DNA of 64,000 nt. It comes from a virus. Under the pieces are notes generated by a model. The model was not told where the DNA came from. It ran no database searches and saw only the letters and a list, made by a program, of their open reading frames with translations. Positions 2,002 through 51,697 of this stretch are shown here, piece after piece (the first letter of the stretch is position 1; each line of letters starts with the position of its first letter). The stretch covers positions 53,470 through 117,469 of IMG/VR virus record IMGVR_UViG_3300030098_006179. The stretch is one strand, 5' to 3'. Made by a program: the position numbers and the translations under genes.

Positions 2002-2991
2002 ATGGCTAAAAAAAATAAAAAACATCTTTTTGAATTTACGGTAAACAAAGAAGAAACCGTGAAGGAGTCTCATAGCGAGAAAAATGACAAGGGCGAAACC
2101 ATCACAACCGAAAAGGAAGTTACTAAACAGGTTCCTGTATATTTCAGTATAAAAAAACCAACACGAAGACTTTATGATGAAGCAGACCTTTTTTATTCTG
2201 TAAAACTTTCCGAAGGAATTAAAGCTGGTTTATTAACCAGAACTCTGCTTGAAAAAAGGTTTGAAAACGATGGAGGAATCTTTTCTGAGGGAGATAAGGA
2301 TAGGTATTTTGAATTATATAGATTGGTTTTTGAAAAAGAAAACGAGTTACAACAAATAGCTCTTAACTTAAAAAATTTAAAAGAGGAAGATAAAAACGAA
2401 AAGATTGCTGAAGTATATACAGAACTAACAATGTTGAGAAGAGATCTTCAGGAATATGAAACGTTATATTCTTCTTTGTTTGAACAAACTGCAGAAAACA
2501 GAGCAAAAAATTCAACTGTAATGTGGTGGGTTTTATTTTTAAGTCAATATAAAATGAGCGAAGGCGAAGATTATAAATCTGTTTTTGACGGAAGTAATTA
2601 TGATGCAAGAATTGAAAGCTATGATTTATATGAAGAAGCTGATGATGATTTCTGGGTGGAAGCAATCAAAAAATTAGTTTATTTTGTTAGTTTTTGGTAT
2701 TCAGGAAATGGTCAAACCGAAGAAGACTTTAAAGAAGCTGAAAAGTTTTACGATCAAGGAGACGAAGAAGGCGAAGAAGGCGAAGAAGGCGAAGAGGGTG
2801 AAGAAGGCGAGGAAGGTGAAGACGCAGAAAACGAGGGTGAAAATAAAGAGAAACAACCTAAAAAACGCGCCCCAAAGAAAAGAAAGCCAAGAAAAAAGAA
2901 AACCGACGAAGAACCTGCTAAAACAGAAGAGCCAGAAGAAAAGCCGGAAGAAAAGCCAGAAGAAACAGAAGAATCAAAGCAAGATGAATAA
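2002..2991 (+). CDS. Tail assembly chaperone-position protein with acidic/basic tail
   Basis: A 329-residue protein between tail tube and tape measure, the place where lambda G-like tail assembly chaperones lie. The N-terminal ~250 residues are helical and charged. From about residue 250 the protein becomes low-complexity: about six Glu-Glu-Gly units, then a Lys/Arg/Pro-rich patch, then a Glu/Lys/Pro-rich end. This acid-base-acid tail is probably disordered and could hold the hydrophobic tape measure protein in solution; that is inference. Its TAA overlaps the next ATG as TAATG, so the two proteins are translationally coupled. I see no recognisable catalytic motif. Confidence 0.75.
   Translation: MAKKNKKHLFEFTVNKEETVKESHSEKNDKGETITTEKEVTKQVPVYFSIKKPTRRLYDEADLFYSVKLSEGIKAGLLTRTLLEKRFENDGGIFSEGDKDRYFELYRLVFEKENELQQIALNLKNLKEEDKNEKIAEVYTELTMLRRDLQEYETLYSSLFEQTAENRAKNSTVMWWVLFLSQYKMSEGEDYKSVFDGSNYDARIESYDLYEEADDDFWVEAIKKLVYFVSFWYSGNGQTEEDFKEAEKFYDQGDEEGEEGEEGEEGEEGEEGEDAENEGENKEKQPKKRAPKKRKPRKKKTDEEPAKTEEPEEKPEEKPEETEESKQDE
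2761..2826 (+). repeat. GAAGAAGGC-type 9-base tandem repeat
   Basis: About seven imperfect copies of a 9-base unit encode Glu-Glu-Gly repeats in the 3' part of the chaperone-position gene. Third-position differences (GGC/GGT, GAA/GAG) show the protein sequence is conserved more than the DNA, so the repeat is probably selected at protein level. Such a tract can vary in length by slippage. Confidence 0.85.
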
Positions 2992-3992
2992 TGTCGGTAC
3001 AAGCCAAACAAGAGTTTTCTTTATGTAGAAAATTATATAAAGATATAATTAATGGATATTCATATATACCATATCACAAGATATATGTAAAACACTTCAA
3101 AGAAATAGATATTGGAGAAATAAACGAATCCAAACAACGAATAATTGAAGAAACAAAAGAAAAGGGACTTCTTGGAGAAAAAGAAAAAATTGAGATGCTA
3201 ATAGAAAGCGGTCACTGGTCGCAGGATAAAGAAAATCAAATACAGAGTTTAGAAGAACAAATAGCAAATCAGAAACAAGCAAAAACTAAACTTTTTGTTA
3301 AATCTCAATTAGATGCGGTTCAACGTCAAATAGATCAAAAACAAGAAAAATTAGAAGAACTCCTTCAAGAAAAATTTTCAATTTTAGGACTAACTGTCGA
3401 ATCTTTTTCAGAAAAAAAATCCTCGGAAGAAGTGATTAGGTTCGCTCTTTTTAAAGATAAAGATTTTGAAATACCTTTATATACAGAAGAAGAATATGAA
3501 GAATTAGAACAAAACGAATTAGAAACTTTAATTTCTATATATTCACAAGTTTTGGGTGAATTTTCTGAACATAGAGTCAAAATGGTTTCTGCGGCAACAT
3601 TTTTTATGAACACTTTAATGTTGTGCAAAAATAACCCTTTTACTTTCTTTGGTAAGCCAGCTTGTCAATTAACTAATCTACAAATGGAAATGTTTTCTCA
3701 TGGATTATCTTATAAAAACGTTTTAGAAAAAGGGAATACTCCATCTCCAGAGATATCTCTAAATTTAGAACAAATGGTAGAGTGGTATGAATCTGCAGGA
3801 AACATACAAAAACTAACAGAAAAAGCAAAAGATAGAGACGGAAGTACAGTAATGGGTGCCACTAAAAAAGAATTAAGAATAATGAATGAAGGAAATGAAG
3901 TTATTGATTTAGCCAAAGAAGCAGAGAAAAAAGGTGGCACATTAGATATGCAAGATTTCGTTAGAATTCATTCGCAGAACAAGCAAGTTTAA
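2991..3992 (+). CDS. Second tail assembly chaperone-position protein
   Basis: A 333-residue protein starting within the stop codon of the previous gene (TAATG). Residues ~35-130 are a long charged helical or coiled-coil segment containing a G-H-W-S motif followed by Glu/Gln/Lys heptads; the C-terminal half is more globular. It lies immediately before the tape measure gene, where a lambda GT-like partner would be expected. Unlike lambda, there is no usable -1 frameshift: the frame has a TGA two codons before this ATG. Separate, coupled translation is therefore more likely. A partnership with the upstream protein is inferred. No enzyme motif is seen. Confidence 0.75.
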   Translation: MSVQAKQEFSLCRKLYKDIINGYSYIPYHKIYVKHFKEIDIGEINESKQRIIEETKEKGLLGEKEKIEMLIESGHWSQDKENQIQSLEEQIANQKQAKTKLFVKSQLDAVQRQIDQKQEKLEELLQEKFSILGLTVESFSEKKSSEEVIRFALFKDKDFEIPLYTEEEYEELEQNELETLISIYSQVLGEFSEHRVKMVSAATFFMNTLMLCKNNPFTFFGKPACQLTNLQMEMFSHGLSYKNVLEKGNTPSPEISLNLEQMVEWYESAGNIQKLTEKAKDRDGSTVMGATKKELRIMNEGNEVIDLAKEAEKKGGTLDMQDFVRIHSQNKQV

Positions 3993-4042
3993 GTGTAATA
4001 TCAGTCGTAAACTCCTGTATTTAAGGAAAAAGGAATAGGTGA

Positions 4043-7000
4043 ATGGCTAGAGATATTTTACTGTCTGCTGAGTTAGATCTCAAGCGGATTAACGCTCAAA
4101 TTAAGAAACTTGAAAACAAGAAAATAAACTTGTTTTCAGGAGACGCTAGAAAATTACAAAAATTTCAGCAACCCTTGGGGAAAATTGTTGGAACCCTTGG
4201 GGAATTCGAAAAATCATTAGAAGCTTCTAATGCTCGTGTTATTGCCTTCGGTGCTTCGGCTGGCGCAATTTACGCAGTGCAACGCGCTGTTGCTCATGCT
4301 TTCAGATCTTTTGTTGACGTAGAAAAAACATTAAAAGATATTAATGTAATTTTAGGAGCAACGTCTGGCAATTTAAAAAAGTTTGGAAACGAGTTATTTG
4401 AAATAAGCAAAAAAACAGGAACAGGATTTAAAGATGTAGCCGAAGCTGCAACCGAACTTTCAAGACAAGGTTTAGGAGTAAGTGAAACTCTTAAAAGAAC
4501 CAGCAATGCTCTTACCCTCGCAAAGCTTTCTGGAATGGACGCTAAGAGTTCGGTAGAAGCTTTAACCGCAGCCATAAACAGTTTTAATAAAGCCGCTTTA
4601 ACATCTACTCAGATAACCAATAAACTTGCCAATGTTGATGCTAAGTTTGCTGTTAGTTCTCAAGATTTAGCTGAAGCTATTAAGCGTGTTGCTAGTAGTG
4701 CTCAAAGTGCTGGAGTATCTTTTGACGAGTTAGTAGCATCAGTTACAGCCGCACAACAAATGACTGCCCGTGGTGGTAACGTTATTGGTAACTCGCTCAA
4801 AACTATTTTTACAAGAGTCCAAAGACCTAGAGTAATAAGAGATTTAGAAAAACTTGGAGTAGCAGTTAAAGACGCTCAGGGAGTTATGCTACCCACCATG
4901 AAAATATTGAAAAATATGGCAGTGGAATTTGATAACTTGGGCAAATCTCAAAAAGCTCAAGCTGCAGAAATGGTTGGTGGAGTATTTCAAGTTAATATTT
5001 TAAAGGCTGTACTATCAGATTTAAATAAAGAATTTTCAGTTTATAACAGTGCCCTCAAAGCATCAACTAATGCAACTGACGAAGCTCAAAGAAGAATTGC
5101 AGAATTAACTAAAACTTTTGCTGGGTTAATGAACGAAACTCAAGCGAACATAACTCAACTTGGCGCATCTGTAGCAAAAATGACTTTAGAGCCAGCGGCA
5201 AGAAAAGTTTTAGAGAGCTTTAATAGCGCTTTTGAAAAAGGTCAAAAATCAGAATCTATAGGTGCTGATATTGGAAAGGGAATGCTTAAAGGCCTTGGAA
5301 CATTTTTGGCTGGCCCGGGATTAGCAATAGGCGCTGTTGCATTTGTTAAATTATTTGGAAAACTAACTTCATTTGCCAAAGACGCATTCCAAAGTATAAT
5401 GGGATTAAATAGAGCGCAACAACAACAAGCAGATACTCAAAAACAAATTTATGAAATTTTAAGAAAAAATCCAGACATATTAAGTAAAATACAACAAGGA
5501 GAAACTAACATAGCTAAAGTTCATGATATAATTTTAGATAAAATACAAGCGGAGAATCTAGCGCTTCAAGCACAGCAAAAACTCATAACTACCCTTGGGT
5601 CATCCGTAGGAATTGGTAATGCAAGTGCAAGAACTCGCACTGCCCAAAGAAAACTGGGAACATCAATTGGAGAAACCTCAAGTCATGGTTTTAATTCTGG
5701 TTCCGCAAAAGAATTTTTTGGAATGATCTCGGGAGGATACAGCAAAAAAGCTTTGCGTGATCCCGGCATAAAACAAACCACTTTGAGTGATGGCAAAAAA
5801 TCAGTAAAATCATTCATAAACAAACATGAAGATCAATATTCATTTACTAATTCAAAAGGTAAAAAAGTTGATATGGTGTTTCCAGAAAAAGGAAGCAAAG
5901 CTTATAAACAATTCATTAAAAATATAAATTCTTCAGGAGGGTTTGTTCCTAACTTTGCTCCAAGAAGAGGAAGATACTATGACTTTGATGAAACTTTAGG
6001 AACCTATGGCCCACAAGTTAGATCAAAAGATTTGTTTGATCCAAGATCGGCAGGATTAGCTAGTCCAACTCCATTAGCCAAACAATTAGGCGGAAAAACT
6101 ATAAAAGTTTTAACGGCAAGAGATGTAAAAGCAACCGAACCAATTGCATCAAAACTTAAAAGCTGGGGTATAGAAGTTGAAAAAATTCTTACTACAGCTA
6201 ATATGTTTAGGGATTTAAAAATATCATCAGATGGTTCTGGCAAGATTGTAAGAAATCCATCTAGAACCGGAAGAATGAAAGGGTACAGAAATCTAAACCC
6301 TGCAGAGAAAAAAGCTTTACTTCTTCAAAGAATGCAAAAGAAATTCGGTGGACAGTTTAGTTTAACCGATGACGCAGCAGCAAATATACAAGCTATTAAA
6401 GCGTTAAAGAATCCAAATATAACTGGAGAACTTTATAAATTTGCCGGTCAACACGCTGGCAGAGGAAGCGGTAACGCTAGAGGATTTGTTCCAAACTTTT
6501 CTAAATTTTCTAGACCCTCAAGAAACAGGTCTGACGATGTTCAAAAACAGATAGCTGATGAATTTGCAGCATTAACTGGAACACCATATACAAGAAAAGG
6601 TGGAAGATACAGCTTCCCAAGAGGAACAAGTGTTGATGGACAAACTTTTTCAACTTGGGCAAGAACAGGTGGCGGCGGCGGCACCGTCGCAGGCAAAGCA
6701 AAAACAAAAGAGATGATTGACCAAGGTAGAATGCTTCAATTTGGTGATCACAAATCTGCAATGCTTGTGCCTCGTGAGGGATATAAAAAAATATCAGATG
6801 GTTTTAGAGGTATGGACCTTGGTAAAAAGGGTCCACAAGATGATATCGTAGTCCATTTCCCTATTGCTGCTTTAAACACGCCCGTTGCAAAAAAGGGAGA
6901 AGAGACAGCTTTCATAAAAGAAATGGAAACCAAAGCTAAGGATTATGCTTTTGCTATTGGGAAAGCTATAGGCAATGCATCAGGAACAAAAGTTACAAAA

Positions 7001-10000
7001 GATTTAATAAGCAAAGAAGTAGGAAATGTTAAAGGTTTTGAAGGTTCAATAGCGGGCGCGGCAGGATCCGCATTAGAAGTAGCTTCAAGAGCAGGATTTG
7101 GATTTGAAGCTGATAAACAGGTTAGACACGGCGCAGATTTTGATGTTACTTCAAATAATATAGGAAAAGTTAAAGATTATTTTCAGGGTCTTCCCGGCGC
7201 AACGAGACTAGCAGATTTAAAAATACAAGATAGCCCGGGTAATAGAGAAAGTATGATGAAAAAAATACTCAAGCTTGAGTATGGAGTTACTAGTAAAGAC
7301 GCGTTAGAAAAGAAATTAGGAATAAAATCAGCAGCTTCTGGATTTAATTCTAAAGAAGCTAAAAGAGCAATGGTTGCTGAAGCAATGGCTGGAGCCGATC
7401 CAGAATTCAGAACATCACCATTCCCACACGTTGCAGATAAAAGAACTCAAAAAACTTTTAAAGATGTTTTAAAAGATCATCCAAATTTAGGCGAGGCGAT
7501 TAAAAATTCCAGAAAACAACAATCATTTGTTCCAAATTTTGCTCCGCCACCCACGCCCGGATCAGCCTATGACCCCAACCTTAGAGCCGGATTAGGAACA
7601 GCTATTTTAGGTGGAGACTTAAAACTTCAAATGAAAGATTGGGGGCAAAGAATAATGGCTTTGGGTAAAAGTGCTCAAACTTTAGAAAAAGAGCAAAGAG
7701 AGCTAACATCAGAAATAGCAAAAGCAGAAAGGTTATACGGTACACATAGTCGAGAAGTTGCAGAGCTTACAGCAAAGCAAGACAAAGTTTCACAACAGCT
7801 AGATAGAAGAGTTAGAATTGATAAAGTTCAAACAAAGAGATCAGAAAAAATGTCTACTTTTATGCAAAGATACGAAAGATCGCAAACCAAAATGTTAACT
7901 GCCTCTTTTGTTCTTCCGCAAGCAATGGGAATTTTGTCAGAAACTCTAGCTAAGGGTAGCCCAAAAGCACAAAAAAGTATAAATGCTATTTCTAGTTCCA
8001 TGTCAACGGGCGCAGCCGTAGTGGGAATGATCCCCGGTCCGGCAGGAATGGTTGCGGGCGCATTGGCTGCTGTTGGCGGATCAGCATATGGACTAATAAA
8101 AGCTCAAACAGATTTGGGAGCAGAATACGATAAGAGGGCAGAAAAATCAAAAGAAGAATCTACATTATTCTCTGACGCGAGTTCTAAATATTTAAGCGCG
8201 CTTGAAGCAGCGCAAGGAGCTTACGATAGAGATGCAGAAGGCAGAACGAAGTCCGAAGAACAAATACGTAAAATTTATGACAAATTAGAACAATCTCTTA
8301 GAGATGTACCTGAAGCTTATCGTTCGGAAATAGCATCTATTTCAAATCTCAATGAAGCCAGAGAATTTGCAGCAAAAACTAATTATGAATTAGCAGAAAA
8401 GGCTAAAAGAGATGAAGAAGCCAAAAACATGAAAGATAAAATCAACGAACTCAAAGGTGCTGGAAAATATGTTTCAGCAACCGACATGTTTTCGGGTCCA
8501 AATGATTTTGTTGAAGCTATATTAAAGCTAGGAGGAAATAAGCTTACTGACGCGTTTTCAGAAAACAGAGGTCTTCTTTCTGATGCAGACTCAATGAAAG
8601 ATATAGTTAAGACTTTAAGAGATATTGACGCAATAAGTGAAGGGCAAGCAGAAGTTCTTTCAAGAATAAACGAAGTAGGCGAGCTTGAAGTAGTAAATGG
8701 AAAAAATGTATTTAAAGTTTTGGACGAAAGATTAGAAGGAAAAAGTGATTATAATAAAAGAAATAAAGTAACAGCGGAGTTACTAAAAAATTCCAATTAC
8801 CAAAGGTCTCTTGCTCTTCAACAAATAGAGCAATCTAGAGAACAATCTAAACTGTTGAGAGAACAACTATTAGCTTTAAGTGCTTTTGGTAAATCGTTTA
8901 GAACAAGCGTGGCGGAAGATAAAAAACAATTAAGTTTAGCAAAAGCCAAAGGTGCCATTGATCTTGGTTCAGATTATTTAACGACTGACTCAAAAAGAGA
9001 ATATCAGTATATGATTGATGCTGCTGAAGTCAATATAGAAGCCTCAAGAAAATCCAATGTTAGTGTTGCCAAAAATTTTGATTCTTTAACAAGAAAAATC
9101 AACGAAACTTTAAGCAAAGCTGCTGCATCTCAGACTGTTGGTGCTCGTGGTATAGAATCTGACGCTTATGCGTCTAGTGAAGCTATACGAGCCGCAAACG
9201 ACCAAGTAATAAAATATACAAGTTCAACAGGGGACGTTACGGGAAACAATATACAACAATTGAATTCTGGATTGTTAAATCTAGTTGATGGTTTTGATGG
9301 ATTAAGTGATTCTCTCAGACAGGAATTAAGAAATCAAATTAAAATATCACAAACTCAAACCACTCAAACTTTAGCGGAAAACGAAAGGTTGAGAAGAAAT
9401 AATTTAGAAGTTCTAAAATTAAATAAAAGTTTTGAGGAACAAAAAGCCATATTCTCAGAATTAAAATCTGCATTTGGTGGAATAGATTCATTTATCAAAG
9501 GTGGAGAAGGTAGCGCATTTGCTCCAAATGAAAGACTGTGGGAATCTTTGCAGTTGATGCAGCCCTATCTATCAAATACGACTTTGGGTAAAGTTGGAGC
9601 ACAGCAAGACTATGCACGAGGAATGCTCGGAGTAACTAAAGAAATATTAAATTTGGTTCCAAATGCAACTTCCCAAAACAAAGACATAAGAAGACAAATG
9701 TCACAGCAACTTCTTCCTGTGATGACCGATGTATATAAAAAGCAAATAGATGATCAAATATACGCCATTCAAAATTTAGGATACAATACTCCAGTTGCAG
9801 GTTTAGCAAATTCCTTAAGAGATTTAAATCCTGAAGCTATGGCAAGAGCGCAAATTGACAGTTTCTTAAAAGGAGATGAAATGCCAAAACATCTGCAAGA
9901 CATGGTTGCAGAACTTCAAGAAAGAAACAATCAATTAGGTTTTTCTGGAATGAAAAACGCATTCAGAGAAGGAATTGATAATTCCATAATGATGGAGAGA

Positions 10001-12751
10001 ATAAGCTCTAGCTACAATGACATAAAAGAATTATTGGGTCAACAAGAAAATAAATTATCAACTTTTGATGAAAGATTTAAACTTATAACTGGTCGAGCCG
10101 AAAAAAGAATGGACGCTGGCGACGACTACGACGTAGTCACAAACGATGCAGTTGGCGAAATTAAAAGGTTAAATAGCAAGAGTCAAAATCAATCAAACGA
10201 GTTGGGCGGAATAAGACAAAATTCTCAAGCTTCTTTGTTGCTTGAAAAAAGATCGACAAACTCATTAGAAAGATTGGTTCATGAAGGAACCACCGGACAT
10301 TCTCTTCATACAGACGATGCGAAAACTCATGGATTATTAAAAGAAATACTTGATAAAGCTTTACAAACACAAGGCTCAGGAACGGTGTCACAATACGGAG
10401 GCTTGAATCCAGATGTTATACGCACCATAAATGATTCAGCAGAAAAACAAACAGAAAAAGCTTCTGCTGAAATGAAAAAAAACTTAGGGAGAATTGCTAT
10501 AGCGGGCAACGTTGTACAAAACATAAGCTCATTGATTCAAAAAGCAGTACCAAAAATTGGGTCTGGATTGGCAAGTGGCGCTAGAAGAACTCCATTTTCC
10601 GCAGCGGTAGATCCAGAAACAGCGAGGGCCATTGCTAGAACGCTTGGTTTTGAAATACCTAGATCTGGTAAAGCCAAAACAACCATAGCGCAGCACGCTG
10701 GAGAAAAGAAGCTTGATGCGGAAGCTAAATTCCGCCATGAAAGGAAACAAGGGGCAGGTATTAGATATTGGAAAAGATCCGGCGGGAAGAGAGCACCTTA
10801 CCAAGCCAAATATGTAGGCCAAGGCAAACAACTAGGCGAACTATTTCCAAAAGACGTTATGATTTCCGGAACGCCAGAAGAAGCCCTAGAACAATTGAAG
10901 CGTGAAGCTGCAATGAATGAATATTATGGTGGAAATGTACGAGGTAACATCAAACAAGACTTGAAAAGAGGAGCATTCTTTGGAGAAATGGGATTGGGAG
11001 AAGGCTACGATAACCTAAGTAGGTCAGGAAAATTAGGATATGCGTACGGAGGAATTATCTCCGGAAGATTTTTGCAACAAGGTTTTTTGGGTGCTCAAAA
11101 TAGATTTCAGGGAGCAACTTCAGCACTTGGAAGAGGCGCAGGACAATTTTGGACAGGACTAAAAACAGGACATTCAGGCCAACACAGCCAAGGTTTTATG
11201 GGAAAGACTTCAAGAGTCACGCCGGGTCCGATACCACAGCAAATCGGTGCTGCACTTCGCAGATTTGGTCCGATGGGTCTTGGAATAGGAGCATCTATAG
11301 CTTTAGCTGGCGCTGACGGTGGCGCATTGGGTATGGCAGGATTTTATGATCCGCGTAGTGGTAAACCAAATGAAGGGAAACCAGTTACTGGTAGAAAACT
11401 AAGAAGATATCTACAAAGCTTAAGTCCACAAAAGAAAAGAATTGCAGAACATCAATTAAGAGCCCAAATAGTTAAAAGACTTAGAACAAGGGGCGTTAAC
11501 ATAAAAGGGGCAAAAATAAGTGAAATGTCTTTAAAAGACCTAATACAATTAGAAGAAAAATTTGAAAGAAGAGGAAGCCTAGGAAGAAAAGGTAAAGCTG
11601 TTCTTAGAGGAGCACAAAGAAAAGGCGGAAGATTTTTAAGAGGAGTCGGAGAAAGAATCATAGGCGCAGGACAAGGAATTGCTCAAAGATTTTCCGACTT
11701 CAGAATGTCGGACAGCATCAGATTGGGAGAAAGTTTACCAACTCAATATTTAAGAGATAGCGCTCACATGTCATCACATCCCGGTAGCGAAAGAACCAAA
11801 CAAATTTTATCAGAGAGACAAGAAAGACAAAGAAAAAGAAGAATAAGACGTGCGGCAGGCGGCGCTAAAGCAAGAAAATTTTTCCAACGCTGGATAGCTC
11901 AAGGAATGGTGGGTGAGTCTTTGCCTACAATTAAATCACAAAAGGGAAGAACCGGCTTTGCAAGAAAAACTCCCAGATATAGCCCTGTTGTAAAAAGTGC
12001 CCGAGATATGAAACATAGAATTGCTAGAATGTCATTTGGAGCAGAAGCATTTTTAAGGCATCCGTTAGAAAGTTTAGGAGGAATGGGAGAAGGAATTTCT
12101 AATGTAGGAAAATATGCAAGAGGTAAATATAATTTTTTCACGAAAAGTAAGTCGGGTGGTTTAGCATTAGGACGAAAAGCCTTTAGATTTCAACAAGCCA
12201 GAACTGCAGGCACTCCATTTACAATGAATTTTAATGTGGGTCGTAAGGGAGCCGCACAGTTTATGGCTCAGTATGGACGGGAAGGATCCATGGATCCGGG
12301 CTCGAGAAACGTTGAAAACATTGAAGCTTATAACGAATATTTAAAAAATGCGTCACTAACAGAAAGAATTGGTTCACGCTTAGGTAAAATGACCGGCACA
12401 ACGCAAAGATTTTTTAAAGGCGGAGTCAAGTTTCCAAAACCAACAGTTCCTGTGGATATGGAACAAATAAGAGAAAGAATTAAAAAAGGAAAAACAAAAG
12501 TCTCAGATGTTACAAAAACTCTAACCGAATCAATAAAAAATCAATTAATAAAATGGAAACCCCAATTTGAATTAAAAGACGTTTTAGGAGATGCACAAAG
12601 ATCTTTCAGTAAATTTTTTGAAAATTTTTGGAAAAATTTGACTAAAAAGACATTACCAAAAATAGAACAAGCTCAGATTTTGTTAGAAGGAAAACAACTA
12701 GCTTATGAAAGAATGTGGAATGATTTTCTCAAAAGACTCGAAGGAGCTTAG
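4043..12751 (+). CDS. Tail tape measure protein with embedded modules
   Basis: A 2902-residue tape measure protein, with a good ribosome binding site (AAGGAATAGGTGA before ATG). Residues ~50-380 resemble the TP901/PhageMin_Tail core: long helices with repeated Ala/Ser/Thr, conserved ARGGNVIGNSLKT-type and EMVGG motifs. Around residues 408-440 and 1310-1350 are Gly/Ala-rich hydrophobic segments able to span a membrane. Three copies of G/S-F-V-P-N-F-A/S lie at residues 633-640, 814-820 and 1161-1168 and bracket two globular modules (annotated separately). The remainder is charged helix, turning Arg/Gly-rich toward the end. The protein sets tail length and probably crosses the host envelope at DNA entry. 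The gene ends at a lone TAG, after which the same frame stays open into the next gene. Confidence 0.92.
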   Translation: MARDILLSAELDLKRINAQIKKLENKKINLFSGDARKLQKFQQPLGKIVGTLGEFEKSLEASNARVIAFGASAGAIYAVQRAVAHAFRSFVDVEKTLKDINVILGATSGNLKKFGNELFEISKKTGTGFKDVAEAATELSRQGLGVSETLKRTSNALTLAKLSGMDAKSSVEALTAAINSFNKAALTSTQITNKLANVDAKFAVSSQDLAEAIKRVASSAQSAGVSFDELVASVTAAQQMTARGGNVIGNSLKTIFTRVQRPRVIRDLEKLGVAVKDAQGVMLPTMKILKNMAVEFDNLGKSQKAQAAEMVGGVFQVNILKAVLSDLNKEFSVYNSALKASTNATDEAQRRIAELTKTFAGLMNETQANITQLGASVAKMTLEPAARKVLESFNSAFEKGQKSESIGADIGKGMLKGLGTFLAGPGLAIGAVAFVKLFGKLTSFAKDAFQSIMGLNRAQQQQADTQKQIYEILRKNPDILSKIQQGETNIAKVHDIILDKIQAENLALQAQQKLITTLGSSVGIGNASARTRTAQRKLGTSIGETSSHGFNSGSAKEFFGMISGGYSKKALRDPGIKQTTLSDGKKSVKSFINKHEDQYSFTNSKGKKVDMVFPEKGSKAYKQFIKNINSSGGFVPNFAPRRGRYYDFDETLGTYGPQVRSKDLFDPRSAGLASPTPLAKQLGGKTIKVLTARDVKATEPIASKLKSWGIEVEKILTTANMFRDLKISSDGSGKIVRNPSRTGRMKGYRNLNPAEKKALLLQRMQKKFGGQFSLTDDAAANIQAIKALKNPNITGELYKFAGQHAGRGSGNARGFVPNFSKFSRPSRNRSDDVQKQIADEFAALTGTPYTRKGGRYSFPRGTSVDGQTFSTWARTGGGGGTVAGKAKTKEMIDQGRMLQFGDHKSAMLVPREGYKKISDGFRGMDLGKKGPQDDIVVHFPIAALNTPVAKKGEETAFIKEMETKAKDYAFAIGKAIGNASGTKVTKDLISKEVGNVKGFEGSIAGAAGSALEVASRAGFGFEADKQVRHGADFDVTSNNIGKVKDYFQGLPGATRLADLKIQDSPGNRESMMKKILKLEYGVTSKDALEKKLGIKSAASGFNSKEAKRAMVAEAMAGADPEFRTSPFPHVADKRTQKTFKDVLKDHPNLGEAIKNSRKQQSFVPNFAPPPTPGSAYDPNLRAGLGTAILGGDLKLQMKDWGQRIMALGKSAQTLEKEQRELTSEIAKAERLYGTHSREVAELTAKQDKVSQQLDRRVRIDKVQTKRSEKMSTFMQRYERSQTKMLTASFVLPQAMGILSETLAKGSPKAQKSINAISSSMSTGAAVVGMIPGPAGMVAGALAAVGGSAYGLIKAQTDLGAEYDKRAEKSKEESTLFSDASSKYLSALEAAQGAYDRDAEGRTKSEEQIRKIYDKLEQSLRDVPEAYRSEIASISNLNEAREFAAKTNYELAEKAKRDEEAKNMKDKINELKGAGKYVSATDMFSGPNDFVEAILKLGGNKLTDAFSENRGLLSDADSMKDIVKTLRDIDAISEGQAEVLSRINEVGELEVVNGKNVFKVLDERLEGKSDYNKRNKVTAELLKNSNYQRSLALQQIEQSREQSKLLREQLLALSAFGKSFRTSVAEDKKQLSLAKAKGAIDLGSDYLTTDSKREYQYMIDAAEVNIEASRKSNVSVAKNFDSLTRKINETLSKAAASQTVGARGIESDAYASSEAIRAANDQVIKYTSSTGDVTGNNIQQLNSGLLNLVDGFDGLSDSLRQELRNQIKISQTQTTQTLAENERLRRNNLEVLKLNKSFEEQKAIFSELKSAFGGIDSFIKGGEGSAFAPNERLWESLQLMQPYLSNTTLGKVGAQQDYARGMLGVTKEILNLVPNATSQNKDIRRQMSQQLLPVMTDVYKKQIDDQIYAIQNLGYNTPVAGLANSLRDLNPEAMARAQIDSFLKGDEMPKHLQDMVAELQERNNQLGFSGMKNAFREGIDNSIMMERISSSYNDIKELLGQQENKLSTFDERFKLITGRAEKRMDAGDDYDVVTNDAVGEIKRLNSKSQNQSNELGGIRQNSQASLLLEKRSTNSLERLVHEGTTGHSLHTDDAKTHGLLKEILDKALQTQGSGTVSQYGGLNPDVIRTINDSAEKQTEKASAEMKKNLGRIAIAGNVVQNISSLIQKAVPKIGSGLASGARRTPFSAAVDPETARAIARTLGFEIPRSGKAKTTIAQHAGEKKLDAEAKFRHERKQGAGIRYWKRSGGKRAPYQAKYVGQGKQLGELFPKDVMISGTPEEALEQLKREAAMNEYYGGNVRGNIKQDLKRGAFFGEMGLGEGYDNLSRSGKLGYAYGGIISGRFLQQGFLGAQNRFQGATSALGRGAGQFWTGLKTGHSGQHSQGFMGKTSRVTPGPIPQQIGAALRRFGPMGLGIGASIALAGADGGALGMAGFYDPRSGKPNEGKPVTGRKLRRYLQSLSPQKKRIAEHQLRAQIVKRLRTRGVNIKGAKISEMSLKDLIQLEEKFERRGSLGRKGKAVLRGAQRKGGRFLRGVGERIIGAGQGIAQRFSDFRMSDSIRLGESLPTQYLRDSAHMSSHPGSERTKQILSERQERQRKRRIRRAAGGAKARKFFQRWIAQGMVGESLPTIKSQKGRTGFARKTPRYSPVVKSARDMKHRIARMSFGAEAFLRHPLESLGGMGEGISNVGKYARGKYNFFTKSKSGGLALGRKAFRFQQARTAGTPFTMNFNVGRKGAAQFMAQYGREGSMDPGSRNVENIEAYNEYLKNASLTERIGSRLGKMTGTTQRFFKGGVKFPKPTVPVDMEQIRERIKKGKTKVSDVTKTLTESIKNQLIKWKPQFELKDVLGDAQRSFSKFFENFWKNLTKKTLPKIEQAQILLEGKQLAYERMWNDFLKRLEGA
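5963..6481 (+). other. Embedded HAD-like phosphatase module in tape measure protein
   Basis: Residues 641-813 of the tape measure protein. The sequence shows HAD-superfamily motifs in order: motif I Y-D-F-D-E-T-L with D647, D649 and T651; motif II V-L-T-A-R with T691; a lysine-rich stretch AEKKALLL as motif III; and motif IV S-L-T-D-D-A with D776 and D777, followed by an N-I-Q-A-I helix. Spacing fits a small HAD phosphatase. The family usually hydrolyses phosphoesters through an aspartyl-phosphate. The module is bounded on both sides by the F-V-P-N-F motif. All catalytic residues appear present. The substrate is unknown; delivery into the host with the tape measure protein is inference. Confidence 0.72.
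6503..7522 (+). other. Embedded second module, possible PD-(D/E)XK-like fold
   Basis: Residues 821-1160 of the tape measure protein, between the second and third F-V-P-N-F motifs. Its C-terminal half contains a helix with E1012 (S-A-L-E-V), a G-A-D-F-D-V strand (D1032, D1034) and an A-D-L-K-I strand (D1058, K1060). The order E...D...D-x-K fits the core of PD-(D/E)XK nucleases, but the match is by eye and these folds are easily over-called. The N-terminal part (residues ~821-960) is not recognised and includes a Gly5 linker near residue 880. It could equally be another alpha/beta enzyme or a structural insert. Confidence 0.4.
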
Positions 12752-27834: not shown

Positions 27835-28584
27835 ATGGCTTATACAGTAACAGGTTTACCACGTTTTCAATTAACGTTAATTGGAAATACTTTTTTTGAA
27901 GGTTTTCCAGTAAATGCCGGACAAAGAATTGGATCATCAGTTAGAATAAATCTTCCTAGCAATTTACAAATTACAAACAGTGACACTCAAGAATGGTGTC
28001 CATCCACGTTTTCAATTGGCGATTTTGTTTCAGCAATAGGTCCAGATATGAATGGAGAGTATGTTTTAATAGATGGAGCCAAAACTGTAGAGTTAAAAAC
28101 TTTAAGTTGTCAAAAATACAAAACAGAAACACAAAGTAGCACTGGTCCTGCTGGAGAAAAAGGAGAAAAAGGCAATAGCGGAACAGGTTCCGCTGGAGAA
28201 AAAGGAGACGTAGGAGAAAAAGGAGACGTAGGAGAAAAAGGGGCGGTTGGTTCCCAAGGAAGCAAAGGTCAACCCGGAGAAAAAGGAGAAGGGGGAGATG
28301 AAGGTCCAAAAGGCGGAGTCGGATCAACTGGCGGCACTGGACCAAAAGGAGAAATCGGAAGTGATGGATCTCAAGGAGATCAGGGCGATACAGGAGCTAC
28401 CGGAAACACCGGCAGTAAAGGAGAACCCGGAGAAAAAGGATCAAAAGGTGAGGGTCTTGACTGGAACGACACACAGCAAAGTATATTGATTGGCGGAACA
28501 AAATTTGGACCAAGATTAATTGGAGTTTGTCAAAACGGAACTTATAAATATGTTTATGTTTTTGCCTCAGATCCAACATCATAA
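27835..28584 (+). CDS. Collagen-like tail fibre protein, short
   Basis: A 249-residue protein. Residues 1-100 are a globular beta-rich head. Residues ~104-207 are about 34 Gly-x-y triplets rich in Gly-Glu-Lys and Gly-Asp, which form collagen-type triple helices in phage fibres. The last ~42 residues form a small beta cap containing I-G-V-C, N-G-T-Y-K and A-S-D. The cap resembles the end of the next fibre gene and could serve trimerisation or receptor binding. An AGGA motif lies upstream. It probably forms a trimeric fibre on the tail tip. Confidence 0.82.
   Translation: MAYTVTGLPRFQLTLIGNTFFEGFPVNAGQRIGSSVRINLPSNLQITNSDTQEWCPSTFSIGDFVSAIGPDMNGEYVLIDGAKTVELKTLSCQKYKTETQSSTGPAGEKGEKGNSGTGSAGEKGDVGEKGDVGEKGAVGSQGSKGQPGEKGEGGDEGPKGGVGSTGGTGPKGEIGSDGSQGDQGDTGATGNTGSKGEPGEKGSKGEGLDWNDTQQSILIGGTKFGPRLIGVCQNGTYKYVYVFASDPTS
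28144..28455 (+). repeat. Collagen Gly-x-y repeat DNA
   Basis: The region encodes an uninterrupted Gly-x-y tract. Within it, 28195-28212 and 28213-28230 are perfect 18-base copies (GGAGAAAAAGGAGACGTA), with a partial third copy after them. Expansion by slippage or recombination could change fibre length. Confidence 0.9.
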
Positions 28585-28586
28585 AC

Positions 28587-30845
28587 ATGGCTCACACACT
28601 TTCAAATAATAGAATTTACAGAATGAGGATCGAGGAACATTACGATCCTCAAAGGCCAAGTTGGGCAGAAACTTCAACTGTATTTTTTTGGGATCATCCA
28701 CAAACCAAGGCTGGATATTTAACAAGACACTTTTTTTCAAAAAAAATTAATGTTAATGAAACCATTCCAGCTTGGACATACGACACTATACAAAGTTATG
28801 GATATGATTCTTCAGCTTGGTCCATGTCTAATCCTCCACCAATAACCGGACCCGTTCCAAACACTCAAGGAGTTTATTTTGGACAAAGAAATTTATTTGG
28901 TAAGGGTCTTATTGAAGGTTATAACATCGCAGATATTGATGTATTAAGATTTTGGCCTGTCGGAAGACCCGGTGCGCAAGGAGGTTTAGAAGCTTTTGCG
29001 ATAGGGGGCGATGGTGATGATGATACTATTTTTGCAGATGCTGGATCAATAATTACAAACGGACCTTTGTATACAGACTCTTCTAGTTGGACTCTTATAT
29101 ACAAAGAGGCTTGGTTATATAGCAGAAAAAATAGAGCAAAAACACTTCCCTCTTATACTGATTATTACGATTCAAAAAATTACATTTATCCGCCATTACC
29201 AGAAATAGGATACTGGAATCAACCCAGAGATATTGGTATCACATCTTGGACTTGGACTACTTATAGCGCATCTAACATGTATGTAGAATTTACTGATAGT
29301 TGGTATCAAAATAGATCAAGTTCAAATGCGCCCGGTACATTTACAAATCCACTTATATATACAAACACACACACATCTGCACCATACGCTGATGATTGTT
29401 CGTACACTCACGAAATTACTTCAAGACAAAAAGGAAATTCAGAATTAACCTCTGCTCCAGCTACAAATTCAACAGGAATTAATTTAACTAGCGAAACTGG
29501 AATAGTTTGGGATCCATTATTTAATGTTGAAGGAGTAGAAACTTCTATTTATATAAATTATTGCGATGATGGAACCGATTTAGACAATGATCAAAAAATG
29601 CTTTTAGCAGATCAAATTTGGGGAGGGAATTATTACGAAGGAGGATTTTATATTGAAAACAGAGGATTGGCATATCATTTAGCAAACGCTGTAAAATGGA
29701 ACGAGTTATCTTCCATGACTCAGCCCTTTATAGGAAACTTAACAGATCCAACCCTTTATGGTTCTTATGGAAGAGATGAGGATGGAAATTATGGCCCTAT
29801 ACCTCCATTAATGAATTTTAATGGAGGAGGAGAACAAACTTGGCAAAGTGATCCGAGTTGGAAAGATACCGAACCGTATGCTTCGTATCTCGATTGGGAT
29901 ACAGAATATAACAATTTAGAACAATATTATTCAAACACTTCAGAATATATAGTGTGTTCTTTTGTGGATTATCCAAATAATAGCTGGGTTAAAGTTTATA
30001 AACCAGCAGAGTTATTGGTTGATAATGCGCAAAATGAAAGAATTTGCCCTGAATATAATAAGGGAGATATTATCTTAGCCACGCAAAAAGAAAGCCCAGA
30101 TATCTGGGAGTTTATAGATTTAAATTCAGAAGGAAGACAGAAAATAAATTATAGTACACGAGGGACGCTAATACCATATCATGATTATTTTCCAAATCCT
30201 TATATACCTTTTGAAACTAGCTTTTTAATTCCTTCTGGACAACAAATTCCACCTTATAGTTTTAATTGTTCTAAATATACATATAGTAATGAAATACATA
30301 GAGACAGTGAGGGAACACAAGGAGCAAAAGGAGATCAGGGTGATAGCGCTGCAGGTTTCGAAGGTTCTAAAGGAGAGAAAGGTAGTTCTGGAGAAAAAGG
30401 GGGCGAGGGCGAACCTTTAAATGGAGACCCCGGAGACCAAGGAGAGAAAGGAGAGAAAGGTGGAGAAGGGCCAGCGGGAGAAACGGGATTAACTGGAGGT
30501 ACAGGCCCGAAGGGAGAAGTCGGAAACAAGGGTCAACAAGGCTTTGATGGAGCTAAAGGAGAAAAAGGAGGTGTTGGTTCTAAAGGCGAACCTACGCCGG
30601 GAGACGCTGGCGAATCAATAATAACCGGAAGTAGTTGGGGAACTGTAAATGGAGACCCATCTAATTATACAACCAGCACCAATGGAACTATGGAAATTCA
30701 GCTTGGAGACGCGGCACACACGGCAGGAAACGAAAGTACAACAATTCAATTTTCAAGAAAACATTTTGGAGTTTGTGTTGAAAATACTAGCGATCAACCC
30801 ACATACAAGGGAATTTATATTTACGCTTCGGATTTTATAGATTAA
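28587..30845 (+). CDS. Collagen-like tail fibre protein, long
   Basis: A 752-residue protein starting two bases after the previous stop. Residues 1-570 are an aromatic-rich (Trp, Tyr), beta-rich globular region without a recognised motif. Residues ~576-675 are Gly-x-y repeats, interrupted near E-P-L-N-G-D and near P-T-P-G-D. The final ~75 residues form a beta cap with F-G-V-C, T-Y-K-G and I-Y-A-S-D, similar to the cap of the shorter fibre gene upstream. The order head, collagen stalk, cap suggests a receptor-binding fibre. I see no chaperone gene behind it. Receptor specificity cannot be told. Confidence 0.8.
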   Translation: MAHTLSNNRIYRMRIEEHYDPQRPSWAETSTVFFWDHPQTKAGYLTRHFFSKKINVNETIPAWTYDTIQSYGYDSSAWSMSNPPPITGPVPNTQGVYFGQRNLFGKGLIEGYNIADIDVLRFWPVGRPGAQGGLEAFAIGGDGDDDTIFADAGSIITNGPLYTDSSSWTLIYKEAWLYSRKNRAKTLPSYTDYYDSKNYIYPPLPEIGYWNQPRDIGITSWTWTTYSASNMYVEFTDSWYQNRSSSNAPGTFTNPLIYTNTHTSAPYADDCSYTHEITSRQKGNSELTSAPATNSTGINLTSETGIVWDPLFNVEGVETSIYINYCDDGTDLDNDQKMLLADQIWGGNYYEGGFYIENRGLAYHLANAVKWNELSSMTQPFIGNLTDPTLYGSYGRDEDGNYGPIPPLMNFNGGGEQTWQSDPSWKDTEPYASYLDWDTEYNNLEQYYSNTSEYIVCSFVDYPNNSWVKVYKPAELLVDNAQNERICPEYNKGDIILATQKESPDIWEFIDLNSEGRQKINYSTRGTLIPYHDYFPNPYIPFETSFLIPSGQQIPPYSFNCSKYTYSNEIHRDSEGTQGAKGDQGDSAAGFEGSKGEKGSSGEKGGEGEPLNGDPGDQGEKGEKGGEGPAGETGLTGGTGPKGEVGNKGQQGFDGAKGEKGGVGSKGEPTPGDAGESIITGSSWGTVNGDPSNYTTSTNGTMEIQLGDAAHTAGNESTTIQFSRKHFGVCVENTSDQPTYKGIYIYASDFID
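30312..30611 (+). repeat. Collagen Gly-x-y repeat DNA, second fibre gene
   Basis: About 30 Gly-x-y triplets with two short interruptions. GGAGA/AAAGG words dominate as in the shorter fibre gene, so the two tracts can recombine with each other. Confidence 0.85.
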
Positions 30846-33561: not shown

Positions 33562-35442
33562 TTATTCTTTTGAAATTTTGTAAAAGTTTTTATTGTCAAA
33601 GAAAGAAGAGCTATACACCACCTTGAAATAGTCCGTAGCATTAACTAAATTTTTCAACCAATTCATATCATCCATCTCGTTTGAAAATGGAATAACTTTA
33701 TGAACATTTTCATTACTGTGAAAAAGGTCTTGATTTTCGTTTTGACAGGCTACATAAACATCATGATCTTTATAATCGTCTTTTATAGACTTTAATAAAC
33801 TAGTTGAAATTAATGATCCTCTACCACTCTTGGGGGCAATAAATAAAATTCTATTTTCATTTTCACTCAAAACGTCTTGCATTTTTACCGTTCTGCTCTC
33901 TGAGTTTTCTTTGATCGCAACTTGCCTAAAATAATTTTCAATACTTTTTCTGTCTGAACCTTTGGATAGCTCTGTCATCCAATATCTATGCCCTTCATCA
34001 TCATCCAGAACATTTTCTCTTTTTAGAATTTTTTCATACAAGCAGGTTATCCATTTCGCGTTATCCTCTACTTGTGGTATTTCTGCATTTGGGTCTTTTT
34101 TTATGTTTTCAAAATTAAAATCATAATTAGTATAATCGCAAGAATCTATGAAATCTTCTAAAAATTTTCCAACTGTATTTTTTGAAAAGTTTTTAATTGT
34201 CCATTCTCTAGCCCTTTTGCCAAGCTCTTGCTTCTCTGAATCGCTCATTTCTAAAACTTTTGATAATTGTTTTTGAATTGATTTTGGACACGTGGAAGCT
34301 TTTTTGAATTCTGTATTATGTTCTCTGTATTCAGACCATTCTAGAGGTAGTGAGCAAGCTTCTTCTTCGCACATTTCTTCTCCGCAGGAATAGTTTGTGA
34401 CCAAGGTTATTAGCTCTGCAAGTTTTGCTTCTTGTATTGGAATTTCTTGACCACCGCTTGTGAATGGGTGACAATATACATCCATAACATTATATACCTC
34501 ATTAAGTTCTTTTTCGGAAACGCCTAAATTGATACTAGTTGTATGAACCCCGTCCTTTTTACCACAGTTAGAACAGGGCGCGCCTTGCCCTTTAAAAACT
34601 CTTATTGTGTAGTCTCCACAAGCGTCACATTTATGAGTTGTTAATATATCTGAATGATCAACTCCATATTCGTCTGCAAGCTTATGAATATTCCAACCTT
34701 CAGAAAAATTAGTGTGAAGTAATAATTTTAAATTTTTATTTGTTTGTTGTTTTTTTAATAAAGAAAATCCTTCAAGTAGATTGGGTACAGATTTTCTAAG
34801 TTGGTTTCTAAAAACAAAACCTATAACAAAATCGTTAGGAGTTAAGCCAGCCTTGCTTCTTAAAAGCATTCTTTGATTATGGTCAAGCTTGTAAAAAAAC
34901 TTTTCATCTAATGCTCCATGTAAGGTCTTTACATTTTCTAGACCTTGTTTTTTCATATCTTTTTCTGCAAAATTACTCCATACCCAAAAGTTATCAACTT
35001 TTTTAGCAGCATTAATAGCCGTCGGTAAAATTGGAAGTGAATCAAGTGTTGTCCAAAGGGCTGATTCTATTTTGTTAAACCAAGGTCTAGGTATAGCAAA
35101 ATCTATTCCCCATATATCTTGGACGGCAATATAAACATCAGGCTTAAATTCTTTTACAACCTGATCAAGAAGATGGCTTCCGTATGCTGCCATTCTAGCT
35201 ACCTGTGGGTCTCTAGAAAGCTCTTCCATTTGTCTTTCGTCTGATGGTAAAGTGCCAACAGATTTCCAAGGAGTTCTTTTTAAGGCTGGATTACTTTGAG
35301 GTATTCCACAGCAGTAATGTAGTATTTCGTATTTGTTTGTAGAATACAAATAAGATAGAACCGCTCTGGCATTTCTACCAAAGCCTGTTTTGGCCAAAGA
35401 GAAATCGCTTTGAAACAATAATTTTTTCTTTTTTTCCGCCAT
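33562..35442 (-). CDS. Multidomain glycosyltransferase: GT4, zinc ribbon, DUF4214-like
   Basis: A 626-residue protein; the ATG at 35442 overlaps the upstream TAA (TAATG), preferable to a TTG six bases earlier. Residues ~1-440 are a GT-B, GT4-like glycosyltransferase (F-G-R-N-A-R-A-V near the N-terminus; P-F-T-S-G-G-Q-E-I-P-I-Q-E-A as the donor-binding Glu motif). A four-Cys zinc ribbon (C272, C275, C290, C293) is inserted in the second Rossmann domain. Residues ~450-515 resemble DUF4214 (L-Y-E-K-I-L-K-R then Y-W-M-T-E-L-S-K-G). Residues ~530-626 start a second GT-B domain that seems to continue in the next gene. Substrate unknown. Confidence 0.78.
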   Translation of the reverse strand: MAEKKKKLLFQSDFSLAKTGFGRNARAVLSYLYSTNKYEILHYCCGIPQSNPALKRTPWKSVGTLPSDERQMEELSRDPQVARMAAYGSHLLDQVVKEFKPDVYIAVQDIWGIDFAIPRPWFNKIESALWTTLDSLPILPTAINAAKKVDNFWVWSNFAEKDMKKQGLENVKTLHGALDEKFFYKLDHNQRMLLRSKAGLTPNDFVIGFVFRNQLRKSVPNLLEGFSLLKKQQTNKNLKLLLHTNFSEGWNIHKLADEYGVDHSDILTTHKCDACGDYTIRVFKGQGAPCSNCGKKDGVHTTSINLGVSEKELNEVYNVMDVYCHPFTSGGQEIPIQEAKLAELITLVTNYSCGEEMCEEEACSLPLEWSEYREHNTEFKKASTCPKSIQKQLSKVLEMSDSEKQELGKRAREWTIKNFSKNTVGKFLEDFIDSCDYTNYDFNFENIKKDPNAEIPQVEDNAKWITCLYEKILKRENVLDDDEGHRYWMTELSKGSDRKSIENYFRQVAIKENSESRTVKMQDVLSENENRILFIAPKSGRGSLISTSLLKSIKDDYKDHDVYVACQNENQDLFHSNENVHKVIPFSNEMDDMNWLKNLVNATDYFKVVYSSSFFDNKNFYKISKE

Positions 35443-35954
35443 TACCAACTGTCAAATGATTCAGTTTCTTTGGTTTGTGTTTCTCCATCTTCCTTGGGGG
35501 TATAGAATGAAAATGAAGAATCTAAAGCTTTCATAAGATACTGTTTCAACAGCCTAGCTTCTCCAAAAGTAAATCCAATGATGAAAGAAGTTTTATCAGT
35601 AGAGTCCTCTTTGTTTTCTTTATTTACCGCATAAGAAAAACCCACCTGTTTTCCTTCTCTTTCATATACTCCAAATTTGATTTTAGTAATTTGGTTTTTG
35701 CTTGAGTGGTACGCGCTAAACTCTCGGTTTGATTCAATGGAATCAAGAATTCCTCCTACTTCACCGGCACTTAATTTTACAATAACGTTCTTGTCTGGAA
35801 TTTTTTTATTTTTGACAAATGAACCCTGTCGCTTGGAAGAGTCCCAAGATGCCTGTTTGATCATTGATGAGAAGAAGGCCTTCTCGTTTGTGTTGTACCA
35901 AAAAGAACAGGCTGTTCCGGTTACTTTTGCATTTGGTTTATAAAAATGTATCAT
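35442..35954 (-). CDS. Single-stranded DNA-binding protein candidate
   Basis: A 170-residue protein with strands K-V-T-G-T-A-C-S-F, I-V-K-L-S-A-G-E-V-G-G-I and F-S-A-Y-H-S-S-K-N-Q, a pattern I associate with whirly/PC4-like phage ssDNA-binding proteins. It ends in a Glu/Asp/Thr-rich linker and a F-D-S-W tip, like the acidic, aromatic-ended tail with which SSBs recruit partners. It is next to the polymerase gene and has its own promoter and AAGGA ribosome binding site, fitting an abundant replication protein. The fold is inferred from motif pattern and context. The alternative is a generic nucleic-acid-binding protein. Confidence 0.58.
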   Translation of the reverse strand: MIHFYKPNAKVTGTACSFWYNTNEKAFFSSMIKQASWDSSKRQGSFVKNKKIPDKNVIVKLSAGEVGGILDSIESNREFSAYHSSKNQITKIKFGVYEREGKQVGFSYAVNKENKEDSTDKTSFIIGFTFGEARLLKQYLMKALDSSFSFYTPKEDGETQTKETESFDSW

Positions 35955-35971: not shown

Positions 35972-36000
35972 ATATTAAGTTTTTTTTGGGTGATTGTCAA
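35972..36000 (-). promoter_or_regulatory. Sigma70-type promoter for SSB-like gene
   Basis: TTGACA (35995-36000) and TAATAT (35972-35977) are 17 bases apart on the minus strand. An A8 tract lies in the spacer. The TGA stop of the upstream polymerase gene is contained in the -35 box. The start codon lies 17 bases downstream of the -10 and is preceded by AAGGA. Confidence 0.68.
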
Positions 36001-51251: not shown

Positions 51252-51697
51252 TTTGCGGGAACTCCTTTGACTAGCGTATTGTCAGGAACGTCTTTTGTAA
51301 CGACTGAACCTGCTCCTATTATACAATTATCTCCAATATTTACTGGAAGTATGGTGGCGTTAGATCCTATTCTTACGTTATTTCCTATTTTTGTTTTTTT
51401 CATTTTCCATTCTTTGAATTCCTTTGAGTCGGTAAATAAATCATTAACAAACATTACTCCATGAGCAATGAAACAATTTTCTCCAATCTCCACTCCAGAA
51501 CATATAAAAGAATGACTGCTTATTCTGGAATTTTTTCCTACGCTTGACCCGCTTTGAATTTCTACAAATGGACCTACAAATACTCCATCTTTTAATTCGC
51601 ATTCATATAAATTGCACGGCTCTATGAGAGAAATATTTTTTCCAAATTTACATTTTAAAAAAAATAATCTAAATAATTTTCTGACCATTTTTATCAT
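51248..51697 (-). CDS. Left-handed beta-helix acyltransferase
   Basis: A 149-residue hexapeptide-repeat protein. Repeats I-x-x-x-x-x follow from residue ~20 ([49 protein letters not shown]) and the end is V-K-G-V-P-A-K, as in WbbJ/WlbB N- or O-acetyltransferases. The likely active His is in the A-H-G motif. With the adjacent oxidoreductase and the DegT aminotransferase it would fit N-acetylation of an amino sugar. A second ATG lies 9 bases inside. Confidence 0.85.

What the first reader, a model, noticed from the sequence alone, without database searches (positions are those of the whole stretch)
5939..7546. HAD-phosphatase and a second module inside a tape measure protein, bracketed by a repeated F-V-P-N-F motif
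Three copies of a G/S-F-V-P-N-F-A/S motif at residues 633-640, 814-820 and 1161-1168 cut the tape measure protein into modules. The 173-residue piece between copies 1 and 2 has all four HAD motifs in order (D647/D649/T651, T691, lysines near 755, D776/D777). The 340-residue piece between copies 2 and 3 has a possible E...D...D-x-K nuclease pattern. Enzymes placed inside the protein that enters the host with DNA would be a cargo system: effectors shipped in the tail, perhaps cut free at the repeated motif. I know of tape measure proteins with lytic domains, but not this arrangement by name.
Basis: partly seen in the sequence, partly recalled or inferred. Interest (0 to 1): 0.88.

Follow-up and report, generated by a model that had tools for sequence, protein, structure and literature searches.

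The report
Swappable enzyme cassettes in phage tape-measure
This virus's tail "ruler" protein carries two enzyme-like modules (one a likely nucleic-acid phosphatase, one nuclease-like) between copies of a short repeated peptide, and a large group of uncultured phages uses the same peptide to bound exchangeable enzyme cassettes, which points to a little-known way of carrying enzymes in the tail and perhaps into the bacterium.

Summary
Three FVPNF copies lie in the 2902-aa tape measure protein (TMP; 0.0003 expected by chance). The same motif, [A/S]-x-G-[F/Y]-[I/V]-P-N-F-[A/S], recurs across uncultured-phage TMPs (487 copies in 177 distinct ORFs). Multi-copy ORFs: 85/119 and 72/98 motif loci versus 0/54 reversed-peptide control loci.

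The motif bounds cassettes. Homology between TMPs stops within 10 aa of a motif in 56% of cases (null 7%). Two near-identical phages differ by two modules removed exactly motif to motif; a third shares only the HAD cassette.

The first window module is a HAD fold (AlphaFold pLDDT 86), closest to Pnkp1 and T4 Pnkp 3'-phosphatases; DxDxT is kept in 11 of 13 aligned sequences (the other two are near-identical), median dN/dS 0.11. The second has a conserved PD-(D/E)XK-like pattern; its fold is unconfirmed.

Other TMPs carry GNAT, SNase, P-loop and ADP-ribosyltransferase-like cassettes. The array lies between two hydrophobic segments, suggesting a cargo loop delivered at infection. Delivery, enzyme activity and cleavage at the motif are untested. 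I found no description of this in open papers.

The parts
4043..12751 (+). Tape measure protein ORF, 2902 aa
   Evidence: Pfam PhageMin_Tail 1.8e-29; phrog_4211 3.8e-50
4043..5938 (+). N-terminal core, residues 1-632, shared with the other motif-bearing TMPs
   Evidence: 38-50% identity to the best-matching motif TMPs, with the alignment usually ending just after their first motif; core-only comparison 36-56% for 74 of 75 TMPs
5288..5350 (+). Hydrophobic, transmembrane-like segment 1 (about residues 416-436)
   Evidence: Kyte-Doolittle peak 1.73 at residue 426; N-core segment in 57/61 relatives
5687..5698 (+). GFNS, probable decayed motif at the start of the N-terminal cap (residue 549)
   Evidence: position matches the first motif in relatives; GFNS is not a general variant (8 seen, 5.9 expected)
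5939..5959 (+). Motif copy 1, GFVPNFA, residues 633-639
5960..6481 (+). HAD-superfamily phosphatase-like cassette, residues 640-813; D647, D649, T651, T691, K756/757, D776/777
   Evidence: AF2 pLDDT 85.6, pTM 0.81; Foldseek Pnkp1 (4xru) and T4 Pnkp phosphatase (5uj0) prob 1.00; homologues between motifs
6482..6502 (+). Motif copy 2, GFVPNFS, residues 814-820
6503..7339 (+). PD-(D/E)XK-like nuclease cassette, residues 821-1099; E1012, D1034, D1058-x-K1060
   Evidence: 27-sequence alignment: E and D invariant, K at least 90%; AF2 model poor, no PDB match
7340..7351 (+). GFNS, probable decayed motif before the C-terminal cap (residue 1100)
   Evidence: 38/41 caps of this type are preceded by the motif in relatives
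7355..7522 (+). C-terminal cap module (residues 1105-1160)
   Evidence: cap1 HMM i-E 2.1e-12; this cap is the last module before the last motif in 26/27 cases
7523..7543 (+). Motif copy 3, SFVPNFA, residues 1161-1167
7544..12748 (+). C-terminal part of the tape measure (about 1735 aa)
   Evidence: length in relatives median 1280 aa
8015..8077 (+). Hydrophobic, transmembrane-like segment 2 (about residues 1325-1345)
   Evidence: Kyte-Doolittle peak 1.74; similar segment within 500 aa of the last motif in 45/65 relatives
2002..3992 (+). Two genes directly upstream, conserved next to these TMPs; position of tail assembly chaperones (inference)
   Evidence: clusters found upstream in 60 and 51 of 66 loci

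Best explanation
The region is a cassette array built into the tape measure protein. A conserved N-terminal core and a C-terminal part hold between them a variable run of modules, each bounded by the peptide [A/S]-x-G-[F/Y]-[I/V]-P-N-F-[A/S]. The array lies between two hydrophobic segments. The most likely working is that when the tape measure leaves the tail at infection and meets the host membrane, the loop with the modules reaches the cytoplasm, where the enzymes act early in infection. In this phage the cargo is a Pnkp-like HAD phosphatase (likely removing 3' phosphates from cut RNA or DNA, for example undoing a nuclease-based defence) and a PD-(D/E)XK-like nuclease. Phages trade cassettes motif to motif. 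Shown: motif, boundary role, cassette exchange, HAD fold (predicted), purifying selection, flanking hydrophobic segments. Inferred: delivery to the cytoplasm, substrates, and whether the motif is a cleavage site (about 45%) or an uncleaved docking or linker element.
For: Motif enriched and multi-copy in TMPs. 75/86 motif ORFs with an N-terminus match the TMP core model. Homology breakpoints at motifs, 56% versus 7% null. L413 and L414 (90-96% DNA identity) differ by an ART-like and a 121-aa module missing motif to motif; L415 shares the HAD cassette at 95-98% with a different left neighbour. HAD fold near Pnkp; the 57%-identical L068 cassette matches phrog_415 polynucleotide kinase, 5.5e-6. 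dN/dS 0.02-0.19, median 0.11. P-loop and HAD cassettes co-occur: 8 of 15 P-loop carriers, 6 of the other 163 (relatedness not corrected). GNAT, SNase and cytidyltransferase-like modules. Cargo has 2 hydrophobic segments in 57,828 aa. Motif codons only weakly shared within a protein, 0.57 versus 0.51, so selection is mainly on the peptide.
Against: No experiment: neither delivery nor activity nor cleavage is tested, and no isolate with the cap modules was found. The nuclease model is poor and has no PDB match. Folded domains in several copies may not fit inside a tail tube (general knowledge). One HAD lineage (L064/L116, near-identical) has lost the D-x-D-x-T motif. The phosphatase substrate is by analogy; TM-scores to Pnkp are modest. 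No hydrophobic segment was found after the array in 20 of 65 relatives.
Confidence: 0.62

Rival explanations
1. The motif is an uncleaved docking or linker peptide: it binds a tail chaperone, the tube wall or the TMP core so that modules are held in order, and the enzymes act while tethered.
For: No protease recognised beside the TMP and no Peptidase_S78 in the record; motif hydrophobic and sharply conserved in a variable context; NFA is often lost at the N-cap copy while G-[Y/F/H]-[I/V]-P stays.
Against: Spacing is very irregular, 56 to 1242 aa, which does not suit a periodic tube-wall contact; it is unclear why every module would need its own copy.
Confidence: 0.45
2. The cassettes are host-takeover weapons (degrading host DNA, modifying host proteins) rather than counter-defence enzymes.
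For: Nuclease-like, SNase, GNAT and ART-like cassettes resemble takeover effectors.
Against: The HAD module is closest to an end-healing phosphatase, not a destructive enzyme, and co-occurs with P-loop cassettes.
Confidence: 0.35
3. The modules have no enzymatic role: they are structural or tail-length filler with decayed enzyme folds.
For: Catalytic residues lost in L064/L116; cargo length varies widely.
Against: dN/dS median 0.11 and DxDxT kept in 17/17 close HAD loci; E and D invariant, K at least 90%, in 27 nuclease-like modules; SNase DGD kept.
Confidence: 0.07
4. The repeat exists only as a DNA recombination site; the peptide is a by-product.
For: Cassette exchange breaks at motif DNA.
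Against: Codons within a protein only slightly more alike than codon usage predicts (0.57 versus 0.51), while the peptide is sharply conserved across divergent TMPs.
Confidence: 0.04

Closest known systems
Phage and plasmid polyvalent proteins (Iyer et al. 2017, PMC5512222)
   Same: Large multi-domain proteins thought to be injected with DNA, with varied enzymatic domains including ADP-ribosyltransferases and nucleic-acid-targeting domains, and virion structural domains.
   Different: The paper's main text does not mention tape measure proteins; here the carrier is the TMP, with a dedicated boundary peptide and cap modules.
MARTX toxins (effector arrays; PMC6315884 was seen only as a search hit, details from general knowledge)
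   Same: Conserved arms with a variable run of effector modules between them.
   Different: MARTX release uses a built-in cysteine protease; none was recognised here, and the carrier is a phage tail protein. An analogy of working, not kinship.
Tape measure proteins with lytic domains (general knowledge)
   Same: Enzyme domain within a TMP.
   Different: Those are cell-wall hydrolases; here several nucleic-acid and protein-modifying cassettes in an exchangeable array.
Contractile injection system effectors related to tape measure proteins (PMC11126660, PMC13277306; abstracts seen)
   Same: Tape-measure-related proteins used as effectors.
   Different: Not phage virions, and the parts of the abstracts seen do not describe motif-bounded cassette arrays.
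T4 polynucleotide kinase/phosphatase and bacterial Pnkp1
   Same: Best PDB matches to the HAD model (5uj0, 4xru); the L068 relative matches phrog_415.
   Different: Those are not tail proteins; here the phosphatase-like domain sits inside a tape measure, and a separate generic P-loop cassette is found in some relatives.

Membership tests
HAD superfamily | D-x-D-x-T/V first motif | tested here: met
   D647-F-D649-E-T651; kept in 11 of 13 aligned sequences, lost in the near-identical L064/L116
HAD superfamily | Rossmann-like HAD fold | tested here: met
   AF2 pLDDT 85.6, pTM 0.81; HAD phosphatases are the best Foldseek matches
HAD superfamily | Motif II Thr, motif III Lys, motif IV acidic pair | tested here: met
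   T691, K756/757, D776/777; T and R invariant in A2
Pnkp 3'-phosphatase | Closest structural neighbours are Pnkp phosphatases | tested here: met
   4xru E 7e-4 and 5uj0 E 1e-3, prob 1.00, but TM-scores only 0.50-0.53 by query length
Pnkp 3'-phosphatase | 3'-phosphatase activity on nucleic acid | not testable with these tools
   no assay
PD-(D/E)XK nuclease | E...D...(D/E)-x-K pattern conserved in a family | tested here: met
   E1012, D1034, D1058-x-K1060; E and D invariant, K at least 90%, in 27 sequences; the residue two before K varies in some members
PD-(D/E)XK nuclease | Restriction-endonuclease-like fold | tested here: inconclusive
   AF2 pLDDT 69, pTM 0.52, no PDB match
Tape measure protein | TMP core domain | tested here: met
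   PhageMin_Tail 1.8e-29; many TMP PHROGs
Polyvalent protein | Multi-domain effector protein delivered with phage DNA | not tested
   multi-domain nature shown; delivery not tested
MARTX-like processing | Protease that cuts between modules | tested here: inconclusive
   no protease recognised next to the TMP; Peptidase_S78 not found; no peptidase in the Pfam list of modules

The most novel reading that the evidence does not exclude
A general phage effector-delivery system in which the tape measure protein is a swappable cargo rack: enzymes travel in the tail, reach the cytoplasm on a loop between two membrane segments, and are cut free at a dedicated peptide, with an end-healing module countering RNA-cleaving defences.
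Probability: 0.3. Interest if true: 0.93.

Novelty: new variant of a known kind. Interest (0 to 1): 0.85.

Why it matters
Injected phage effectors are known, but a tape measure that carries a run of interchangeable enzymes bounded by one short peptide would give a simple sequence rule for finding early-infection effectors in uncultured phages, bear on the unresolved mosaic signal of tape measure proteins noted in PMC10684548, and make testable the question of where the tape measure goes during infection.

Tried and rejected
Searches for close relatives of the two window modules by single protein found none, and phmmer against PDB found nothing useful. Pfam gave no HAD or nuclease hit for the window modules. 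An early single-linkage clustering of modules merged 235 of 331 and was replaced by a stricter one. I first read the P-loop cassettes as a polynucleotide kinase; phrog_415 in fact hit the HAD cassette of L068, and the P-loop cassettes match only generic P-loop families, so that claim was dropped. The ART-like label rests on the LYRG and ExE pattern only: the modules tested had no informative PDB or PHROG match. GFNS as a functional motif variant was rejected (8 seen, 5.9 expected). The genome contigs motif hits are mostly single and probably chance; only two ORFs had more than one copy. TMPs of three related isolates lack the motif. The host of this phage was not determined.

Full report
What was checked. 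The ORF at 4043-12751 (+) is a 2902-aa tape measure protein. The three FVPNF copies are at residues 633-639, 814-820 and 1161-1167; the expected number in a protein of this composition is 0.0003.

The motif is general. In motif loci 85/119 and 72/98 have two or more copies in one ORF, in control loci 0/54, and reversed-motif ORFs are short (median 107 aa, none above 800). Of 177 distinct ORFs, 86 include an N-terminus and 75 of these match a model grown from the window TMP core; the other 11 look mostly like chance hits. The 487 copies give the consensus [A/S]-x-G-[F/Y]-[I/V]-P-N-F-[A/S]; the counting pattern itself fixed G, P and N and limited the other core positions, so the small residues before it and the F and A frequencies are the informative part.

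The motif bounds cassettes. Among TMP pairs below 70% identity, 56% of internal alignment ends and 41% of starts lie within 10 aa of a motif, against 7% and 6% for random positions (pairs are not independent). The N-terminal 640 aa of the window TMP align at 38-50% identity to the best-matching others and usually stop just after the first motif; in L199 the nuclease-like and HAD modules are in reverse order. The clearest case is: L413 and L414 are 90-96% identical in DNA, and L414 lacks an ART-like and a 121-aa module, with the joint exactly from motif to motif; in L415 the HAD cassette (positions 3984-4452, 95-98%) has another left neighbour. Motif codons within a protein are only slightly more alike than codon usage predicts (0.57 versus 0.51), so the peptide, not the DNA, is what is mainly kept.

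The HAD cassette. An alignment with 11 relatives gave an AlphaFold model with pLDDT 85.6 and pTM 0.81. Best PDB matches are Pnkp1 (4xru, E 7e-4) and the T4 Pnkp 3'-phosphatase (5uj0, E 1e-3), both probability 1.00 with modest TM-scores. The L068 relative, 57% identical, matches phrog_415 polynucleotide kinase at 5.5e-6. In 17 loci from two further scans the motif lies on both sides in 15 (the left one reads FVPSYA in two); DxDxT is kept in all 17, and dN/dS among 14 of them is 0.02-0.19 with a median of 0.11 (some of these contigs overlap those of the first scans). One lineage (L064/L116) has lost DxDxT.

The second piece. Residues 821-1099 belong to a family with a conserved E...D...x-x-K pattern, mostly D-x-K, the signature of PD-(D/E)XK nucleases, but the model is poor and finds no PDB match, so this is a pattern-level claim. 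Residues 1105-1166 are a separate cap module. Caps of this kind are the last module before the last motif in 26/27 cases, and another cap type in 44/46. Two places where relatives often have a motif read GFNS in the window.

Other cargo. Pfam and PHROGs find GNAT acetyltransferases, a staphylococcal nuclease, P-loop and cytidyltransferase-like modules in 128 module representatives; SNase modules keep DGD. ART-like modules are seen by pattern only. P-loop and HAD cassettes co-occur in 8 TMPs (8 of 15 P-loop carriers; 6 of the other 163 TMPs carry HAD; relatedness not corrected).

Place in the protein. Hydrophobic segments lie before the array in 57/61 TMPs and within 500 aa after it in 45/65, with only 2 in 57,828 aa of cargo; the window has them at residues 426 and 1335. 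The core before the array is 530-570 or 620-640 aa in most complete ORFs and the part after it is about 1300 aa, while the array varies from 164 to 989 aa in complete ORFs with two or more copies. This fits a cargo loop between two membrane segments; that step is inference.

Cleavage. Nothing here tests it. No protease was recognised beside the TMP, and Peptidase_S78 was not found in the record. I give cleavage about 45%.

Known relatives. The polyvalent protein paper does not mention tape measure proteins; a study of protein mosaicism notes an unresolved mosaic signal in them. Literature searches for the motif itself returned nothing, within open-licence papers only. No isolate carries the caps, and the three isolate TMPs examined lack the motif. 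I therefore call it a new variant of a known kind, injected multi-domain effectors, with a case for more.

Noticed in passing
window 35997-38567 (-): DNA polymerase III alpha-like gene (Pfam 4e-56) in this phage.
   Followed up: no
window 33562-35448, 51669-54104, 61642-63132 (-): Glycosyltransferase-like, methyltransferase and LicD-like genes, suggesting decoration of a surface or of DNA.
   Followed up: no
L396:3271-5424: Upstream gene with a PLOD-type glycosyltransferase domain (1e-65) and a family 25 glycosyltransferase domain.
   Followed up: no
L396:9326-9994: A sigma-70 region 2 gene upstream of the terminase-like gene.
   Followed up: no
window 27835-30845: Two genes with tail-fibre matches.
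   Followed up: no
L398 (Lactococcus phage AM9) 5086-6078; L394 (Bacillus phage 2S-4) 9131-10117: In both isolates an annotated integrase or recombinase gene lies directly upstream of the TMP.
   Followed up: no
L225:428-1939 and other GNAT modules: Acetyltransferase-like cassettes are the commonest Pfam match among the module representatives.
   Followed up: partly
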